Shown: piece by piece, positions 30,010 to 38,645 of the stretch
How the letters are laid out: each line of letters opens with the position of its first letter
How positions within the stretch are numbered: the stretch's first letter is position 1
DNA from: Novosphingobium sp. IK01
GTDB lineage: Bacteria > Pseudomonadota > Alphaproteobacteria > Sphingomonadales > Sphingomonadaceae
Direction: 5' to 3'
Assembly (NCBI RefSeq): GCF_033242265.1
Contig: NZ_BTFW01000001.1
Location: 620,001 to 684,000, forward strand
Length of the DNA: 64,000 nucleotides
Notes under the pieces: model-generated
What the model saw: only the letters and a program-made list of their open reading frames with translations
Database searches by the model: none
Told to the model about the DNA's origin: nothing
Made by a program: the position numbers and the translations under genes

Positions 30010-30513
30010 GATTGCGGCGGCCCTTCACGCCGCCCTGTTCCCCCTTTACGGAAGGGGGTCTCGGATGTTCCCGCATCTCGAAACCAGCGAGCCTGCACTC
30101 GCACTCTCCGGGCAGCGCGCCTGTCCCTTCGAGCACCCTTCCGCGTCTCAGGCGCGGAAGGGACATCGTGCAGGATACCCTCCATGTCTACCCCTTTTGT
30201 TCTCGTTCGCCCCGTTTCTCCCCCGGCCGGTTATATCGGTGGAAAACGTAATCTTTCCCGCCGCATCTGCGCCATCATCGAGGCCACGCCCCACACCAGC
30301 TATGCCGAGCCCTTCGTGGGCATGGGCGGCATCTTCCTGCGCCGTGCGCGGCGCCCCAGGGCAGAGGCGATCAACGACATTTCCGGCGACGTCGTCACCC
30401 TGTTCCGCTGCCTTGCCGAACACTATCCCTACCTGATCGACATGCTGCGTGACCTGCCCCCCGAAAGATCCCTCATTCTGATGTAGAGTCTGCCAACTGC
30501 AAGGAGCAGACGC

Positions 30514-30777
30514 ATGAGGAAGAGCCGTTTCACCGAGGCGCAGATTATCGGGATGATCAAGGAGCAGGAGGCCGGGCTGCCGACTGTGGAGGTTTGCCGC
30601 AAACATGGGCTGAGCACGGCCACGTTCTACAAGCTGAAGGCCAAATACGGCGGATTGGAGGTATCCGACGCCCGCCGCCTGCGCCAGCTTGAGGACGAGA
30701 ACGGCAAGTTGAAGCGCCTGCTGGCCGACAGCATGCTCGACAACGCGATCCTGAAGGACTTGCTGGGAAAAGTCTGA
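30514..30777 (+). CDS. IS3-family OrfA
   Basis: An 87-residue protein with a helix-turn-helix ([40 protein letters not shown]) and a leucine-zipper-like stretch ([20 protein letters not shown]) ending in LLGKV. OrfB lies in the -1 frame, and a slip at GGGAAAAG just before the stop would give the fused transposase. Confidence 0.93.
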
Positions 30778-30803
30778 CGACACCGGGCCAGCGGCGGGAC
30801 GCA

Positions 30804-31667
30804 GTGCGGCGGGTGTTGCGGGACTATGATATCTCGCAACGCCGGGCCTGCGTGCTGATTGGTGTCGATCCCAAGACGGTTCGGCGCGAACGCCCGCCTG
30901 ACCATAGCGCCATCCGTGCCGCCATGAAGGAGGTTGCGGGCAAGCGCCGCCGGTTTGGCTACCGGCGGATCGGCATCATGCTCGAACGCAAGGGGATGAT
31001 CATGAACCACAAGAAGCTCTACCGGCTCTATCGGGAGGAAGGCTTGTCAGTGGGGCGGCGGCGTGGCCGCAAACGGGCGCGGGGCAGCCGCACGCCGATG
31101 CCCGTGCCGCTGGCACCGGGGGCACGCTGGTCGATGGACTTTGTGTCCGACACCTTCGGCGCATCACGCAAGTTCAGGATTTTGGCCATCAATGATGACT
31201 GCTTCCGCGAGAACCTGTGCCTGATCGCGGATACCAGCATCTCTGGTGCCCGGGTGGCGCGTGAACTCGACACGCTGGTGCGGCTCTATGGCAAACCGGC
31301 CTGCATTGTCAGCGACAATGGCACCGAATTCACCAGTCGGGCCATCCTCGAATGGGCCGGCAAGAATGGGATCGAGTGGCATTACATCGACCCGGGCAAG
31401 CCTCAGCAGAACGGGTTCATCGAGAGCTTCAACGGCTCGCTGCGCGATGAATTCCTCAACGAGGAACTGTTCGACAGCCTGGCCGATGCCCGCCGGAAGC
31501 TGGCCATCTGGCGCTACGATTACAACCACGTCCGGCCACACTCATCTTTGGGAAATCGAACGCCTGCACAAGCGCGTCGAGCGTTCGAGCAGGACGAAGC
31601 CATCACGCACGACGCGCTTGTGCAGGCGCAGGGGGCATCGTATTTAACTGCTGGACTCTCGTTATGA
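30804..31667 (+). CDS. IS3-family OrfB integrase-type transposase
   Basis: A 287-residue DDE integrase read from GTG 30804 if translated alone, or by -1 frameshift from OrfA. The HTH_21 region ([19 protein letters not shown]) precedes the core with Asp in WSMDFVSD, Asp in SDNGTEFTS and Glu in [28 protein letters not shown] is the typical C terminus. The frame is intact. Confidence 0.94.
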
Positions 31668-32337
31668 TCGAGGGACTGACGGGGGGCAGGTCATGCGCTT
31701 CCGCGTGGCAAGCCGGGCCGAGTTCGAGCGCCTGCTGGCCCAGCCTCCCGAACGCCTGACCGACCTGCAACGCGCGGTACGCTTCCTTTACGTCCAGCGC
31801 CTGGCCTTCGGCGGAAGGGTCTCGGGCCGCACTTTCGGTGTCGACGCCTCCTCGCCCGCGCGCTTCGACGTGGGCAAGCTCGAACCGATGCTGGCCGAGA
31901 TCCACGAGCGCCTGCAATCCGTGGTGATCGAGCGCCTGCCCTATGCCGAGTTCATCCGCCGCTACGACCGCGTCGGCGCCCTGTTCTACCTCGACCCGCC
32001 CTACTGGGCCTGCGAGCGCGACTACGGCCCCGACGTCTTCACCCGCGAGGACTTCGCCGCGCTCGCCAGCCAGCTCGCCACCATCAAGGGCAAGTTCCTG
32101 GTCTCCCTCAACGACACCCAGGGCGTGCGCGAAACCTTCGCCCCCTTCAACCTCACCCCCATCACCACGACCTACACCGTTGGCGCCAAGTCCCGCCCGG
32201 CCCGAGAACTGCTCATCAGCAACTTCCCGCTCCCCGGAAACGATAACTGAGGCAGGGCTCCCGCGCGCTTGGGAACGGGCGCGCGGGGGGGGCAGGTATC
32301 GACCAGAATGCGCCGTTCCAGCGCACTTCGAGGAATG

Positions 32338-33267
32338 TCAGTTTAAGCCATCACCCGTCGTTAGTAACGCCCTGTGCAATAGACGGATCAGTCCCAGACC
32401 TGCGGCTTCAGGTTCTACGGCCCGTTCAAACAGTGCCGATCGGGGGGTAACTTCATCCCCGATGACCAGCGTTGCGATGGTGTAGCCCTCGGCGGCGAGA
32501 CGCCGCTCCGTCTCTTCCAGATGCTGGGCCAATAGGGATCTATCTTCGTTCGCATGGAGCGTGGAGTCATCCACAGGGCAACCATCGGAGACAAGGCAGA
32601 TGACACGGCGAGACCATGCCTGTCTATCAAGCCTGCCGGCAGCCCAAGCAAGTGCTTCGCCATCGATGTTCTCGTGCAGCAGATCCTGACGCAAAGCCAT
32701 GCGCAGCTGCCATGGCCGACTGTCAATCCGCTCGGCCTCGCCGTAAACAATATGCCGCAAGTCACAAAGGCGGCCAGGGTTGCGCGGCCTTCCTGCCCAA
32801 CGCCAAGCTTTACGCGACTTACCTCCCCGCCAGCTTGCGGTGGTAAAGCCGAGAATTTCCGTGGTGACCCCAGCATGCGCCAACGCGTCTACAGCCCCTT
32901 CGACCGCCAGCACTGCGGCCATCATCCGCAGCCCCCGCATTGAGCCGGAATGGTCGATCAGGAAGGAAACTACCGTTTCCAAGCGGTTCTCTTCGGTCAG
33001 CCCCTGTCGAAGCTCGCGAACAAGCGCAGCGCCAGCGGCGCTGATCTCGACCCTCTCAGCCATGAACAGGGTGTCAAACCGCTGATTGGCCTCTTGGAAA
33101 CTGCGCTTCTGGTCAGACGGCATAGCTTTGTTCAAAGCGGATAGCTCGTCCTTCCCCAGCACCTCATCGAATGCCGTCGTGAAAACCCGGTAACTGCCAG
33201 CATCGCGTTCGGGCCCAATGAACCTGCGCTTCAACCCAAGGATGACCGACGATAAGTCCCCGAACAT
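32338..33267 (-). CDS. CobT-like von Willebrand A domain protein (cargo)
   Basis: A 309-residue protein closely resembling the C-terminal VWA part of aerobic cobaltochelatase subunit CobT. VVSFLIDHSGSMRGLRMMAA has the metal-binding DxSxS motif, and EILGFTTASWRGGKSRKAW, NPGRLCDLRHIVYGEAERID, NIDGEALAWAAGRL and LVSDGCPVDDSTLHANEDRS follow the CobT order. The usual acidic N-terminal half is missing and no CobN or CobS gene is near, so cobalamin synthesis is unlikely. ATG 33267 has GGAG seven bases upstream, so the short form looks genuine. It lies between the dam gene and the TIR gene in the cargo segment; a defence role is possible but unproven. Confidence 0.85.
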   Translation of the reverse strand: MFGDLSSVILGLKRRFIGPERDAGSYRVFTTAFDEVLGKDELSALNKAMPSDQKRSFQEANQRFDTLFMAERVEISAAGAALVRELRQGLTEENRLETVVSFLIDHSGSMRGLRMMAAVLAVEGAVDALAHAGVTTEILGFTTASWRGGKSRKAWRWAGRPRNPGRLCDLRHIVYGEAERIDSRPWQLRMALRQDLLHENIDGEALAWAAGRLDRQAWSRRVICLVSDGCPVDDSTLHANEDRSLLAQHLEETERRLAAEGYTIATLVIGDEVTPRSALFERAVEPEAAGLGLIRLLHRALLTTGDGLN

Positions 33268-33722
33268 GTAGAACTCCGAATTAGAGTTCGTAGATTTGGC
33301 CTATTATCAAACGACAAGCAATCGAGCACATCCCGCGCAACGTCTCCCTCATTCCTGACGTTTCCAAGGCCGAATGCGACCAGACATTGCCGTTCAGGCG
33401 TAGTGCCGGGAAGGTCAGCTTACGCCAACATCGGCCATTCCACGCGCCGGGCTTCGTTGTTCGCTGCCGCCGAAAACTACCCATTCAGCGCCTCTGTCCG
33501 CCTCCTCAGGGGCAGTCCGTCATTCATCTGTTTCGAAAAGCCCTCCAGCAAACCCCGCCCAGTTCTGGACTACACCTTTCTGCCATGACGCCCCGCACAG
33601 GCATGTGAAAACGACAACCGGCAGGCAATCCACTTATCCATAGCCAAATGCCGTTTAGGATAACCGGGCCACTTCTCCTGGCCACCGGCCGATTGGTCGT
33701 AGCTAACGCATGTGATTTTCGC
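33268..33722. other. Intergenic segment in the cargo region
   Basis: About 455 bp between two leftward genes. It holds an inverted repeat GAACTC / GAGTTC (33271-33276 and 33284-33289) that includes the ribosome-binding site of the CobT-like gene. I see no convincing gene; a 67-codon frame at 33281-33484 lacks support. Confidence 0.4.
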
Positions 33723-35017
33723 TTAAAGCCTTCTCTTCCGAACTTTGGTTATGATTGATGCAATTTCTGCGGTAGAAAGCTGTGGGGCAAACGTATTTAA
33801 TGCGTTGAAAGAGCTCCCTAAAATTAACAATGCGATACCGTAGGTTTCAGCCAACCCTGGAAGAAATGCCAACCAATTGCTTTGATAATCTTGATTCACA
33901 CGGGCGGCATCTAGCTCGGAAATTGCTTTCATAACTAGATCCGGGATCCTTGAACGTGCCAAAAATCTCCATCGTTCGGCTCTCAGCTCGAACCGTGGAT
34001 CGACACCGATTGCCCTGTCCATATATTCAATAGCGCTGGTGTAGTCCCCCGTAAGCTCGGCCTCTTCCGCCCTTAATTCAAACGCAGCACTTCCAACGCC
34101 CGGGTCATTCTCGAGAGTTGCTCTCGCTGCTTCCAGTCGAGCATCGATATCGCTCGGTGCAGAATTTCTGGGGTCTGCCCTATACTTCCAATTCAAATAG
34201 ACCCGCGGCAGCGCCATCAAACTGAAAACGGTATGTCTCAGTTCCAGCCACTTCTTTGCATAAATTTCAGCTAGCCGAAAATCTGGGCGTGGAGACAAGA
34301 TTATACATTGAATGAGTGGTCGATAGGTGCGCTCGATACGGCTATTTTTTCCCTTATTTAAATCAAGAGAAATCTCATACTGTTCGATTGCATCGCGAAA
34401 TGCACCTTGGTGATGAAGTAAATCAGCCTTCAAGAATGCCGCTATTCCCTTGTTATTATAGACGCCATCTAACAATTTAATGCACGCATCAGCTTCATCA
34501 TATTTGTGATTTCGAATAGCGCTAAGGCAAAAATATCGCGTCAACTCCACACGTGATTCTGCTCTAAACTCATCGCGCGCCTGGTACGCCTTCCTTAAGA
34601 CACGATACGCCGGTCCTCGACGTCGTGCGTGGTACAGGCGAACACCCGCTTGGAACCAATGCGAAGCCGACACAAATTCCAATACCCCTTTAGGGATATG
34701 CTCTGTTTCACCAAGCAAAGAAGCCTGAATTCGAGACTCAATGCGAATATACTCGTGTTGAGATGTTTCAAATTCGATGGGTTCTCGAACAAATCCGTAA
34801 AGAGCCTTGCGAAGCCAGGTCAACAAATCGACTCTAATAAGGTCCCTGCTCAGGCGATTCGCAAGCAGCGGCGTCAGCCTGTACAGACTATCCCCCTCGC
34901 GCTCGATCACTCCAAGCTCTAAGAGCTTTCCAATGACACGAAGAATTGGCTTTTGTGGCTTTACGACAGATTCGATATCAACCAGATCGCAGGGGGAAAC
35001 ATCATTTAGGAAAATTA

Positions 35018-36348
35018 GGCCGTGAACCCATAAATCTGTGATGCTAGATTACCAGCGGCCACCGTGTGGACAGGCACGCCCTTCGAGCGCAAAGTGCAGG
35101 CATGAAGAAGCTGGCCGCCATCTATGAACGCAAGGGGCAACTGTTTGTGACGGCGTCGCACAAGACGGCGGCGGGTTTTTGGATCGACGATGAGCAAGTG
35201 GCTTGCCTCAGCCAGCCTTCGCATGATGAGTTGGGTCGCGCCATCGAACAGGCTTTGGCTCGATCGCAGGAAGGCGTCCCGACGCCGCCGCCCGATGCAC
35301 ACATCGACAAGCCATTGCTGGCGGCCGCCGGCGTTCGTTCGTGGACCACGTTCATGAAATTGTCCAAGCATGTCAGTGTCGTGAGCGACGGGAGTTTGCT
35401 CAAAGTCACCCCCTATCGCAATTTGGGTAGCAAAGAGGGCTTTGAGCCGGAGCCGGATATAGCGGTTCCATCTGCTAATTCGGCCTCGGCTTTGGGGCAG
35501 ATCGTTGCAGACCTGCTCAGCCGAGCGGCATAGCGGCATTGGCTCGAACTTTCTTCTTCCGTCAAAATCTGATTCAGGCTTGGCATGAGCCGATATGACT
35601 TGACCGACTTCGAGTGGCGCGTGATCGAACCGCTGTTACCGAATAAGCCCCGAGGTGTGCCGCGCGTCGATGACCGCCGCGTGCTGAACGGCATCTTCTG
35701 GGTGTTGCGGTCCGGCGCGCCTTGGCGCGATCTGCCCGAGCGCTATGGCCCGCGCACCACCTGCTACAACCGCTTTGTAAGATGGCGGAAAGCAGGAGTG
35801 TGGGATCGGATGATGGACGCCATTACCGCCGCCCACGACGGCGACATTCAGATGATCGACAGCACATCTATCCGGGCGCACCAGCAGGCTGCGACGGCAA
35901 AAAGGGGGATCGAGATCATTGTCTCGGTCGCTCCAGGGGTGGACTCACAACCAAAATCCACGCGGTCGTCGACGGGCAAGGCCTCCCGATCCGGCTGAGC
36001 CTGACCGCAGGACAAAGCCATGACGGCCAAGCTGCCGACCATCTGCTCAAACATGTCGGTGCCGGAACAATCGTGCTGGCGGACAAGGCCTACGATGCTG
36101 ATCGCATCCGGGCGTCACTGCGTGAGAAGGGAGCGTTTGCCAACATTCCGCCCAAGGCCAATCGGAGGTCGAAACCGTACTTCAGCACGTGGCTGTACCG
36201 CGAGCGGAACCTGATTGAGCGCTTCTTCTCCAAGCTGAAGCACTTCCGCCGTGTCGCAACGCGCTATGACAAGTTGGCAGAAAACTTCCTCGCCATGGTC
36301 CAACTGGCCTCAATGCGGCTGTGGCTCCGTGTTTATGAGTCTACGGCC
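35018..36348 (+). mobile_element. IS427-type (IS5 family) element with passenger gene, copy 2
   Basis: The left end GGCCGTGAACCCATAAAT at 35018 and right end TTTATGAGTCTACGGCC ending 36348 are flanked by TA on both sides. The element is 1331 bp and sits inside the TIR gene. Its transposase half matches copy 1 (12824-14024), but the left 560 bp carry a different passenger gene, oriented like the transposase. Confidence 0.88.
35102..35533 (+). CDS. Passenger gene of IS427-type element: possible contact-inhibition immunity protein
   Basis: A 143-residue protein beginning MKKLAAIYERKGQLFVTASH. The central part (SWTTFMKLSKHVSVVSDG) and the end (KVTPYRNLGSKEGFEPEPDI) recall proteins annotated as immunity proteins of contact-dependent growth inhibition, but I recall this only by resemblance and cannot confirm it here. 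No CdiA toxin gene is near, so it would act as an orphan immunity factor. It occupies the site filled by an unrelated gene in copy 1. Confidence 0.55.
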   Translation: MKKLAAIYERKGQLFVTASHKTAAGFWIDDEQVACLSQPSHDELGRAIEQALARSQEGVPTPPPDAHIDKPLLAAAGVRSWTTFMKLSKHVSVVSDGSLLKVTPYRNLGSKEGFEPEPDIAVPSANSASALGQIVADLLSRAA

Positions 36349-36351
36349 TAG
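35585..36351 (+). CDS. IS427-type transposase, made by -1 frameshift (copy 2)
   Basis: Frame 1 from ATG 35585 ends at 35998 and the -1 frame continues to 36351, joined at the same GCAAAAAGGGGG slip site as in copy 1. DDE residues are in IQMIDSTSI, LADKAYDAD and RERNLIERFF. The stop is TAG, in which TA is the target duplication and G comes from the TIR gene. Compared with copy 1 there are scattered silent and a few amino-acid changes, so the copies are related but not recent twins. Confidence 0.88.
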
Positions 36352-37599
36352 AACTCGTTGCTCGTCTTCATCGCCGCGCAACTGATTGAATGCCCAGCGC
36401 GCATAGGCGGTGATAGAAGTCGACATTGAGCGGGTATCGCGCGCAATAAGCTGATCTATTGTATCGAAATCCTCGACATTTGCAGATGAACGCACCAGAG
36501 AAACAAGAAATCCTATAGTACCTCCAGCAGACTTAACTAAACCTTGAACATCTTGATCAGACCAACGTGCTGGATTTTTATCGAAATATCCAATCAATTG
36601 ATAACAAAATTCATTTAGCTCATATTCCGATATAGTAGGAACTCGCTGAACTGCTGCAGAATCAGATATCCCGATTCGACGCTCTCCCAATACCGGTGTC
36701 TGAGAAATAACAAACATCTTTGGGCGGCGAGAGGGGGCCAGCAGGTTGGACAGGTCATCCAGCCAGCGAGGGAGCTCTTCATTTTCTTCAATCACTCTGG
36801 CATGCTTGAGAATAACATAGTCTCCGGCGGCAAAAACTCGCTCAATAGCATCAGCCAATGCCTTAATTTCCGTCTCAGACGTCGAAACCTTGATATCCTT
36901 GAGGTCGTCTCGGGACAGCCCAAATGCTTCGCTCTCAACTCTTAGAAGAACCTGATTAGGTAGAGAAGTTTCATTGATCTCAACAAGAACACCTCGTCCG
37001 TTGGGAACGAATGCTCGATTGAAATTTCTGACCAAAGTCTCTCGACCGACGCCGTTGAAGCCAGTGATCCACATTACAGGTAGGCAGTCAAAACGCCCCT
37101 TCTGAATGGCGGTCCGCCAAACTGGGTCAAGGTCAAGTCTAGGAAATTGCGGATGATCTGCACGGAGAAGGGGCTCAACGGCACGCTGAACTAGGTCTGT
37201 CGCATGGATGAAATCGATTGATGCGGGGGAAGTGCGGTATCCCAGCATTGCCTTCAAAGCTTCAAATACGGGCTCAAGCTTGGGGTCCATGGTCTCGTCG
37301 AAGATGATGGGATAATCATCAAGCCTTAAAACCAGTGGTCTAATACGTTCTTGTTGAACCAATTCCCGAGCTTGCAAAATTTCTTGTACACATCCTTGAG
37401 CATGGACGTATCGCTCGGACCAAAAAATGATCAGTAGGCGTGATTTAGGGAGCTCTTCCTTAGAAATTTCATCCCAAAGGTGGGCACCATCTACTCCTGT
37501 CTTAGAGTACAAGTATGTATGCCCATCTGGAATCCTGTCGAAAATTTTTTCGGCGAAAGAGATATCGCTTGATGCAACTGAAAAGAAGACGGGGTACAT

Positions 37600-38108
37600 A
37601 AAAGGCGATTCCTCTAGCGCGCCATCCGATAGATAGCTCAAACACCTATCTGTTACTCGACCAGTGCGAAAGAGTTTTGACGTTCAATAATCTGAAAAAT
37701 TGTAAAAAACGGTCTGTAGCGAGCTCAAAGAAAGTGAGCTGCCATCACCTTTGAGCACTACGTCTCGCCGCAGGCCTGGTGTCGTTAGGCTTCTCGCAAC
37801 AGATCCTTGAGGATCAATTGTCGAGCATGCTGTCGGCCAGCATTGACGCAATCGAATGTTCGCTATCTCGCTTACGCGGCCGTGAAGCCGCCGTTCCGGA
37901 GTGTCCTCCGACCTAGCCGAAGGTGAGCGGGCAACCAAGGTTGGATAAATGACGGATTTAGGCGCAGTCTGACGCTACCTGCCGCCGTTCCGATCGGCAG
38001 GAACGTCCCAGACTCGGTCGCCCCTCGCTCGGCTACCAGCACTTGGCCAGCCAGCCAACCCGATACACCCCCCGCGTAACCTGAGCGAACCCGCGCCATG
38101 GTCTGGCC
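37600..38108. other. Intergenic segment between the TIR gene and gpV
   Basis: About 500 bp without a supported gene. The left part should hold the promoter of the leftward TIR gene. A hairpin CCTGCCG / CGGCAGG at 37978-38001 lacks a T run. A leftward 84-codon frame at 37684-37938 has no convincing protein pattern. Confidence 0.4.
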
Positions 38109-38645
38109 ATGGCGACCACTTCCGATCCTGAACACCTTACTGGTGACATCCTGCGCCTTGGCGTGGTGGCGGCTGTTGATGCGGCCGGGGCGACCTGCAT
38201 GGTGGAGGGCGGGGGTGTGGTGGCCGGGCCTTTGCCGTGGGTGGCGTGGCGGGCCGGGGGCTTGCGGGTCTGGGCGCCGCCTTCGGTGGGCGAGCAGTGC
38301 CTGGTGCTTTCGCCCGAGGGGGATCTGGGCAACGGGATTGTATTGCCGGGGCTCTATTGCGATGCTTTCCCGGCGCCGTCCGATCAGCCTGATCTTGTCT
38401 GTTTTGCTTTCGCCGACGGGGCTTGGATCGGCTATGATCCGGTGCGCCATGCGCTGGCTGTCACGCTGCCCGCTGGGGGCACGGCTGCGCTCGATGCGCC
38501 CGGCGGGCTGACCATCCATGGCGATGTTACCGTCAACGGCACCCTGACTGCCAGCGGCGATGTCGTGGGGGAGGGGGTTTCCCTCAAGGGGCACCGGCAT
38601 TCCGGCGTACAGGGCGGCAGCGGCCAGACCGGGGCGCCGGTATGA
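38109..38645 (+). CDS. V: Baseplate spike protein (P2 gpV family)
   Basis: A 178-residue tail spike. The N-terminal OB fold (LGVVAAVDAAGATCMVEGGG, LPWVAWRAGGLRVWAPPSVG, EQCLVLSPEGDLGNGIVLPG) precedes a beta-helical part (LTIHGDVTVNGTLTASGDVV). The metal-binding tip HRHSGVQGGSGQTGAPV is at the end, where the two His bind iron in P2. It pierces the outer membrane. Confidence 0.95.
   Translation: MATTSDPEHLTGDILRLGVVAAVDAAGATCMVEGGGVVAGPLPWVAWRAGGLRVWAPPSVGEQCLVLSPEGDLGNGIVLPGLYCDAFPAPSDQPDLVCFAFADGAWIGYDPVRHALAVTLPAGGTAALDAPGGLTIHGDVTVNGTLTASGDVVGEGVSLKGHRHSGVQGGSGQTGAPV

What the first reader, a model, noticed from the sequence alone, without database searches (positions are those of the whole stretch)
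33723..37599. NLR-like TIR / P-loop / helical-repeat protein in a P2-type cargo slot
Removing the IS427-type element and one TA gives an unbroken 847-residue frame: a TIR domain with an NADase-type Glu (about residue 73), a P-loop with the unusual GFNGVGRET, a winged-helix-like linker and about 330 residues of helical repeats. This is the layout of bacterial TIR-STAND antiphage proteins (sensor repeats at the C terminus, ATPase in the middle, NAD-degrading effector at the N terminus). It lies beside a methylase and a CobT-like VWA protein in the segment after the tail-fibre genes. The modified P-loop and the pairing with the VWA gene may mark an undescribed subtype.
Basis: partly seen in the sequence, partly recalled or inferred. 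Interest (0 to 1): 0.78.

Follow-up and report, generated by a model that had tools for sequence, protein, structure and literature searches.

The report
Phage-carried immune-receptor gene, broken by transposon
A virus dormant in a bacterial genome carries a transposon-split gene related to a known bacterial immune receptor (TIR-NLR), and all 16 proteins of this kind compared here have an altered ATP-binding site, degraded further in this gene's branch.

Summary
Confirmed: two halves of one gene (window 37599-36351 and 35015-33723, minus strand) flank a 1,335-bp IS with four copies in the genome. Both halves align in order to the same intact proteins (45/48% to an 843-aa relative). Layout: TIR, STAND-like P-loop module, weak winged helix, TPR. 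It lies in a cargo slot of a P2-like prophage; a second, closely similar prophage in the same genome has other cargo there.

It is a divergent relative of E. coli TIR-NLR, an antiphage protein (Rousset 2022) with solved structures (9m0n, 9umd); PADLOC's model misses it and its two closest kin. A more distant relative sits in another P2-like prophage beside the same kind of methylase.

The "modified P-loop" is no subtype mark: Arg replaces the Walker-A Lys in 16 of 16 proteins compared, E. coli included. Loss of the Walker-B acid (7 of 16) does set branches apart. The VWA pairing is not borne out (0 of 16 receptor loci; 0 of 2 VWA loci).

Most likely role when intact: TPRs sense phage, subunits assemble, TIR cleaves NAD, the cell shuts down. 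Activity is inferred, not measured. New variant of a known kind.

The parts
36351..37599 (-). N-terminal half of the split TIR-NLR-like gene (416 native codons; frame runs 13 codons on into the IS to a TGA)
37318..37590 (-). TIR domain (TIR_2, residues 4-94), catalytic-type Glu at residue 73 (37381-37383)
   Evidence: E=5.5e-7; Glu conserved 16 of 16
37036..37062 (-). P-loop GFNGVGRET (residues 180-188), Arg in place of the Walker-A Lys
36793..36819 (-). Walker-B strand YVILKHARV (residues 261-269) without the acidic residue
35016..36350 (.). insertion element of the IS4/5 kind (DUF4096 transposase; 'IS427-type' by eye), 19-nt imperfect inverted ends, transposase in two overlapping frames (35585-36351), plus a 155-aa extra ORF (35066-35533)
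33723..35015 (-). C-terminal half: winged-helix-like stretch and TPR repeats
   Evidence: HTH hint from profile A1 to 2dbb (E=0.0098)
32338..33267 (-). CobT-type VWA protein, 309 aa (matches only residues 260-509 of the genome's own CobT); same slot, not linked elsewhere
32323..38004 (.). variable cargo slot of the P2-like prophage (adjoining flanks 97.6% over 629 bp and 95-96.6% identical to a second prophage, G000:C1 309252-315579)
30184..32250 (+). D12-class DNA methyltransferase gene bordering the slot, interrupted by an element (about 30451-31693, IS3-type by eye); uninterrupted in the second prophage
38109..38645 (+). gpV-type baseplate gene at the other side of the slot

Best explanation
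The split gene is the recently inactivated remains of a single-gene antiphage receptor of the TIR-NLR kind, carried as cargo by a P2-like prophage. When intact, its TPR repeats most likely sense an infecting phage, the central STAND-like module then lets subunits assemble, and the clustered TIR domains destroy NAD+ (or make a signal from it), so that the infected cell stops before phage are made. The STAND-like module probably does not cycle ATP: the Walker-A Lys is Arg in all relatives compared, and this branch also lacks the Walker-B acid, so it may work as a one-way or nucleotide-independent switch. Shown: domain order, homology to E. coli TIR-NLR, conserved TIR Glu, residue changes, slot, disruption. 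Inferred: sensing, assembly, NAD loss, absence of ATP hydrolysis. In this lysogen the gene should not work; at most a TIR plus P-loop fragment of about 429 residues could be made.
For: Halves co-linear with intact 843- and 870-aa proteins. Profile of the two nearest kin (A4) aligns to a profile of five E. coli-type TIR-NLRs (A5) over 643 columns, hhalign probability 98.4, E=4.3e-15. A profile of seven intact relatives (A1) finds the solved E. coli protein 9m0n, profile positions 3-812, E=1.3e-70; the KL53 protein matches 9m0n over all 824 residues. PADLOC TIR-NLR PDLC03015 matches L027 (5.8e-44, full length), L028 (1.6e-20, to residue 626) and, over the first 140-190 residues only, L025, L026 and L013. 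Rousset et al. 2022 (PMC9122126, passages read) report the E. coli protein as TIR+STAND+TPR and protective against phages, including P2-like ones. Setting: E. coli copy between a polarity-suppression (psu) gene and an integrase, i.e. a P4-like element; relative L043 in a prophage related to the window's, beside a D12 methylase; L026 and L041 near restriction or methylase genes, L042 beside a CAP12-type TIR gene. TIR Glu 16 of 16. Both low-confidence models rank plant TIR-NLR RPP1 first in the PDB.
Against: Neither window half nor the two closest relatives (L022, P0003) reach PADLOC's TIR-NLR model at E<=0.1. A1 holds L027 and L028, which match that model themselves, so they may carry the 9m0n hit; L022 alone finds no PDB chain at E<=1 and A4 finds only the TIR protein Cat1 at E<=0.1, not 9m0n. 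L022 and P0003 lie beside genes that by eye are lepA and glnA, not in an obvious defence island. Structure predictions are poor (mean pLDDT 46), TM-scores to RPP1 are 0.26 or less, and 9m0n is not among the 50 rows listed for either model. Most mobile-element settings come from collections of plasmids and viral contigs, so they are biased by where I searched. No activity has been measured in this branch. Conserved acidic residues just after the Walker-B strand (EE in window, L022, P0003) might replace the lost acid.
Confidence: 0.7

Rival explanations
1. It is the third component of a vWA-MoxR-inactive-STAND ternary conflict system: the neighbouring CobT-type VWA protein is its partner and the degenerate NTPase is an 'iSTAND'.
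For: An inactive STAND with N-terminal TIR and a vWA partner is described in print (PMC7159879, PMC8195603, passages read); here a VWA gene lies 455 bp downstream on the same strand.
Against: No MoxR-type gene among the slot's ORFs. VWA absent from 16 homologue loci; the short or divergent VWA relatives followed in two genomes have no TIR-NLR near. The protein aligns over most of its length with single-gene TIR-NLR. Homology to iSTAND itself was not tested.
Confidence: 0.06
2. The TIR is not an NADase effector but an adaptor, and the protein regulates something other than phage defence in its hosts.
For: The two nearest intact relatives lie beside genes that by eye are lepA and glnA; NTPase motifs are degraded.
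Against: Glu73 kept in 16 of 16; patchy distribution (2 of the other 396 genomes of the family searched); gene G+C 47% in a 63.5% window; plasmid, satellite or viral-contig settings of many other relatives, with the search bias named above.
Confidence: 0.15
3. The branch has lost function altogether: the eroded NTPase motifs show a decaying gene lineage.
For: Walker-B acid, Sensor-1 Arg and GR-box Gly are gone in this branch; this copy is interrupted.
Against: Two intact frames of 843 and 870 aa at 31-48% identity to the window halves, and frames of 856-860 aa in the second branch, two of them 88% identical, show that long frames were kept; TIR Glu, GR-box Arg and Walker-A Arg do not vary in 16.
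Confidence: 0.07

Closest known systems
TIR-NLR of E. coli P4-like satellites (Rousset et al. 2022, PMC9122126, passages; KL53 copy WP_085381489.1; PADLOC PDLC03015; PDB 9m0n, 9umd)
   Same: Single gene, TIR + STAND + TPR, similar length (824 against about 847 residues), TIR Glu, Arg in Walker A, carried by a P2/P4-type element.
   Different: 14% identity of L022 to it in A3; E. coli keeps the Walker-B Asp (FFLDDG) and Sensor-1 SR, the window has ILKHA and SQ; the PADLOC model does not reach the window's branch.
TIR-NLR-like proteins L013, L043 (prophage-borne or beside an integrase), L025 (Komagataeibacter), L026 (Acetobacter)
   Same: Same layout, Arg P-loop, Walker-B acid lost; L043 in a prophage with terminase, integrase and methylase related to the window prophage.
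   Different: Separate branch on the tree; whether both branches lost the acid once or twice is open (p-AU 0.458).
AVAST type 5 (Avs5) STAND proteins (PMC12931631, passages read)
   Same: N-terminal NAD-degrading effector, central STAND, C-terminal repeats; Walker-B there is also unusual (IIFIE), and E410Q keeps protection, so its authors see it as serving binding rather than hydrolysis.
   Different: Avs5 has GPAGSGKT, and replacing its Lys363 by Ala abolishes immunity; here the Lys is Arg. The effector there is Sir2.
iSTAND / iSTAND2 of vWA-MoxR ternary systems (PMC7159879, PMC8195603, passages)
   Same: STAND with eroded NTP motifs, sometimes with TIR.
   Different: Those go with vWA and MoxR genes; here a single gene, no MoxR, VWA not linked elsewhere.

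Membership tests
TIR-NLR (Rousset 2022 / PADLOC) | Single-gene TIR + STAND NTPase + TPR | tested here: met
   window halves and intact relatives; STAND part by homology only (no Pfam NTPase hit over cut-off), TPR hits of window, P0003 and others below cut-off
TIR-NLR (Rousset 2022 / PADLOC) | Match to PADLOC model PDLC03015 | tested here: not met
   window halves, L022, P0003: none at E<=0.1; L027 full length, L028 to residue 626, L013, L025, L026 N-terminal part only; five E. coli-type proteins
TIR-NLR (Rousset 2022 / PADLOC) | Homology over most of the length to E. coli-type proteins | tested here: met
   643 columns, prob 98.4; 9m0n, A1, perhaps carried by L027/L028; not found by L022 alone or A4
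TIR-NLR (Rousset 2022 / PADLOC) | TIR Glu and Arg-type P-loop as in E. coli | tested here: met
TIR-NLR (Rousset 2022 / PADLOC) | Walker-B acid as in E. coli | tested here: not met
   D in 9 of 16, absent in window and 6 others
TIR-NLR (Rousset 2022 / PADLOC) | Phage protection, NAD loss | not testable with these tools
   -
vWA-MoxR-iSTAND ternary system | Adjacent MoxR AAA+ gene | tested here: not met
   slot 32323-38004 holds VWA, TIR-NLR halves and IS genes; rest of the window not scanned for MoxR
vWA-MoxR-iSTAND ternary system | Conserved linkage with vWA | tested here: not met
   0 of 16 homologue loci (three of them only 4.7-7.1 kb); 0 of 2 VWA loci followed
vWA-MoxR-iSTAND ternary system | Homology to iSTAND domain | not tested
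   no iSTAND sequence fetched
AVAST (Avs) | Canonical Walker A GxxxxGK[ST] | tested here: not met
   Arg in 16 of 16; no Avs model among PADLOC hits of window halves or seven relatives

The most novel reading that the evidence does not exclude
TIR-NLRs are a family of immune receptors with a naturally converted P-loop (Lys to Arg throughout), and some branches, the window's among them, have gone on to lose the Mg-binding Walker-B acid: receptors that assemble and fire without ATP turnover, as one-shot or nucleotide-free switches.
Probability: 0.35. Interest if true: 0.65.

Novelty: new variant of a known kind. Interest (0 to 1): 0.47.

Why it matters
The ATP cycle is generally held to be the switch of NLR-type receptors. 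A family with Arg where the Walker Lys is called invariant, and with branches that also lack the Walker-B acid, offers natural variants to ask whether an NLR can work without ATP hydrolysis. The finding also suggests that carriage of TIR-NLR-type genes by P2-type elements, known from E. coli, recurs in another bacterial family.

Tried and rejected
Rejected: P-loop as a subtype mark (Arg in 16 of 16). VWA as partner. The weak hits G773 and G583, which fall in frames that by eye read as NtrC and PriA. Close kin of the window halves, L022 or P0003 in viral contigs, plasmids, phages or named genomes: none found (window halves; P0003 or A4: 39, 41, 99; L022 in phages: 68). The scans of viral and genome contigs need exact short peptide words, so they reach close kin only. 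Structure prediction: mean pLDDT 46.4 and 45.8, too low to rest on; its PDB matches are weak support only. Papers: none holds 9M0N or 9UMD. In the searches no listed title or abstract start, and no passage that I opened (PMC9122126, PMC8195603, PMC7159879, PMC10952713, PMC12931631), speaks of an Arg P-loop in TIR-NLR; most listed papers were not opened, and the library holds open-licence papers only, so it may well be in print. Host species not established: contig C2 (first 12 kb) matches 24 plasmid records, mostly Sphingobium, Novosphingobium and Sphingomonas, the eight listed at 76-79% over 28-40%.
Full report
WHAT IS THERE. On the minus strand, 37599-36351 and 35015-33723 are two halves of one gene, split by an element at 35016-36350 with 19-nt imperfect inverted ends. 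The element has four full-length copies in the genome, each reported as 100% identical, so the disruption is probably recent. Each half is open up to the insertion. From the ATG at 37599 the N half reads on for 13 codons into the element, giving 429 residues.

RARITY. With the N half, the genome search matched 2 of 98 relatives (own genome, and a weak hit in G002 that led to L013), 1 of 385 of the class (own, E<=1e-5), and 4 of 398 of the phylum (own, G670, and two weak hits rejected by eye). With P0003, 3 of 397 of the family: own, G670, G1034. The C half matched only its own genome among 98.

DOMAINS. The TIR domain is TIR_2, E=5.5e-7 in the N half, and above cut-off in all seven relatives scanned. 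The middle region has no NTPase family hit above cut-off in any of these. The C half has TPR hits below cut-offs. A profile of seven relatives (A1) hints at a helix-turn-helix at positions 407-457 (2dbb, E=0.0098).

WHAT IT IS RELATED TO. The L013 protein finds four plasmid relatives, annotated as TIR or TPR proteins, in Komagataeibacter, Acetobacter, Zymomonas and Enterococcus. PADLOC's TIR-NLR model matches L027 over its length (5.8e-44) and L028 to residue 626 (1.6e-20); L025, L026 and L013 match in the first 140-190 residues only (1.7e-8, 5.6e-7, 1.1e-6); the window halves, L022 and P0003 do not match. A distant DNA search with the Photobacterium gene gave partial matches (16% of the query in the rows listed) in 26 of 5,426 E. 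coli genomes, the ten listed rows annotated as TIR proteins. The gene was fetched from strain KL53, where it sits between a polarity-suppression gene and an integrase. It matches PDLC03015 over its full length and the solved chain 9m0n. Profile to profile, the window's two nearest kin align with five E. coli-type proteins over 643 columns (prob 98.4). A1 finds 9m0n with E=1.3e-70, but A1 includes L027 and L028, which may carry that hit; L022 alone and the two nearest kin as a profile did not find 9m0n.

MOTIFS. I compared 16 proteins (window N half, L022, L015/P0003, L013, L043, L025, L026, L027, L028, L034, L032, L030, L031, L033, L041, L042); L013 and L043 are 88% identical. The split E. coli copy L035 and the E. 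coli copy L040 (not one open frame) were left out. Walker-A: Gly184 and Arg185 in 16 of 16. TIR Glu73 16 of 16; GR-box Arg153 16 of 16. Walker-B Asp in 9 of 16, missing in window, L022, L015, L013, L043, L025, L026; Zymomonas (L027) and L031 (same class as the window's host) keep it. Sensor-1 Arg in 5 of 16. On a tree of the N-terminal parts, window, L022 and L015 form a clade with 100/100 support; the seven without the acid need two changes (one in 41% of bootstrap trees), and a single origin is not rejected (p-AU 0.458). For contrast, the Avs5 paper calls the Walker-A Lys invariant and reports that K363A abolishes immunity; it also reports that its Walker-B mutant E410Q still protects and reads that motif as serving binding rather than hydrolysis (PMC12931631, passages). 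So an NLR-type protein that may not need Walker-B catalysis is not without precedent; for that I lowered interest-if-true from 0.68 to 0.65. That Arg at the Walker Lys usually spares binding and impairs hydrolysis is recalled knowledge, not tested here. Conserved EE just beyond the Walker-B strand in window, L022 and P0003 could substitute.

WHERE IT LIES. Neighbouring genes are P2-type tail genes (tail fibre, tail fibre assembly, baseplate gpV-type, baseplate wedge, a head-closure family match, tape measure, tail protein). The own genome holds a second prophage: aligned segments around the slot are 95-98% identical, one 644-bp segment far upstream 89%. The two differ between window 32323 and 38004 (5,682 bp) against G000:C1 309252-315579 (6,328 bp). 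The second slot holds a 304-aa protein with Mrr_cat (2.3e-9) and weak TIR-like hits below cut-off, a 181-aa protein with a weak Mrr hit, a 317-aa protein without hit, and others that by eye are an AraC-type regulator, two SDR enzymes and an AhpD-like protein. So the region is a cargo slot. TIR-NLR G+C is 47% against 63.5% for the window. In viral contig L043 an 88% homologue of the L013 protein starts about 250 bp after a D12 methylase of the same PHROG as the window's, with terminase (50%), integrase (42%) and methylase (50-55%) related to the window prophage. The place in the phage map differs, so I claim recurrence of the association (two prophages), not of the slot.

OTHER SETTINGS. L025 near UvrD-helicase and PD-(D/E)XK genes, L026 after a type I restriction operon, L041 near HSDR_N and DNA-methylase genes, L042 beside a CAP12-type TIR gene, L013 near an integrase. 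L027, L028, L032 and L033 lie on plasmids without a clear defence neighbour in what I looked at. L022 and P0003 are beside genes that by eye are lepA and glnA. L030 and L031 were seen only in stretches of about 5 kb or less. The plasmid and viral settings are biased by the collections searched.

VWA. The 309-aa VWA (CobT_C, E=4.8e-38) matches residues 260-509 of the genome's own CobT at 38%. It is absent from 13 homologue loci and three more; three of the 16 are short (L030 4.7 kb, L031 5.0 kb, L013 7.1 kb). In the genus, 86 of 94 genomes match, most by frames of about 600-640 aa, the size of CobT; I followed the two best other copies (G1237 75%, G035 39%), and neither has TIR-NLR or window phage genes near.

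STRUCTURE. Window N half with three viral relatives: mean pLDDT 46.4. L043 protein: 45.8, with 11 of the first 13 blocks of ten residues between 66 and 80. Both rank plant TIR-NLR RPP1 first (7crc, 7dfv; E 3e-4 to 2e-3, TM-scores 0.26 or less), then TIR proteins among others; 9m0n is not among the 50 rows listed for either. This is weak support.

MECHANISM. Rousset et al. suggest that the TPRs may sense infection, the STAND domain oligomerises with ATP or GTP, and TIR degrades NAD (passages); they tested protection, including against P2-like phages. I carry sensing and NAD loss over to this family by homology, and question the ATP step from the motifs.

Noticed in passing
30451-31693: An element (IS3-type by eye) lies inside the D12 methylase gene; the second prophage of the same genome has the gene uninterrupted (272 aa), with a 5-base overlap at the junction that looks like a target duplication.
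   Followed up: partly
35066-35533: 155-aa ORF of unknown kind inside the IS that splits the gene, carried by all four genomic copies (99-100% identical); no Pfam or PADLOC hit at E<=0.1: an IS with a possible passenger gene.
   Followed up: partly
L014:9385-10841: Second prophage's slot carries a 304-aa protein with an Mrr nuclease domain and weak, below-cut-off TIR and deoxyribosyltransferase hits, followed by a small Mrr-like protein (E=0.008); no PADLOC hit at E<=1e-5: a possible defence pair.
   Followed up: partly
L035:8001-10476: E. coli CS5L TIR-NLR is annotated as two overlapping genes (TIR part and TPR part), i.e. split.
   Followed up: no
L042:4943-5791: A CAP12/Pycsar-type TIR gene stands directly before a TIR-NLR relative in a viral contig.
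   Followed up: no
32338-33267: Stand-alone short form of the CobT VWA domain in a phage slot, with a 75% identical copy outside phage context in another genome of the genus.
   Followed up: partly
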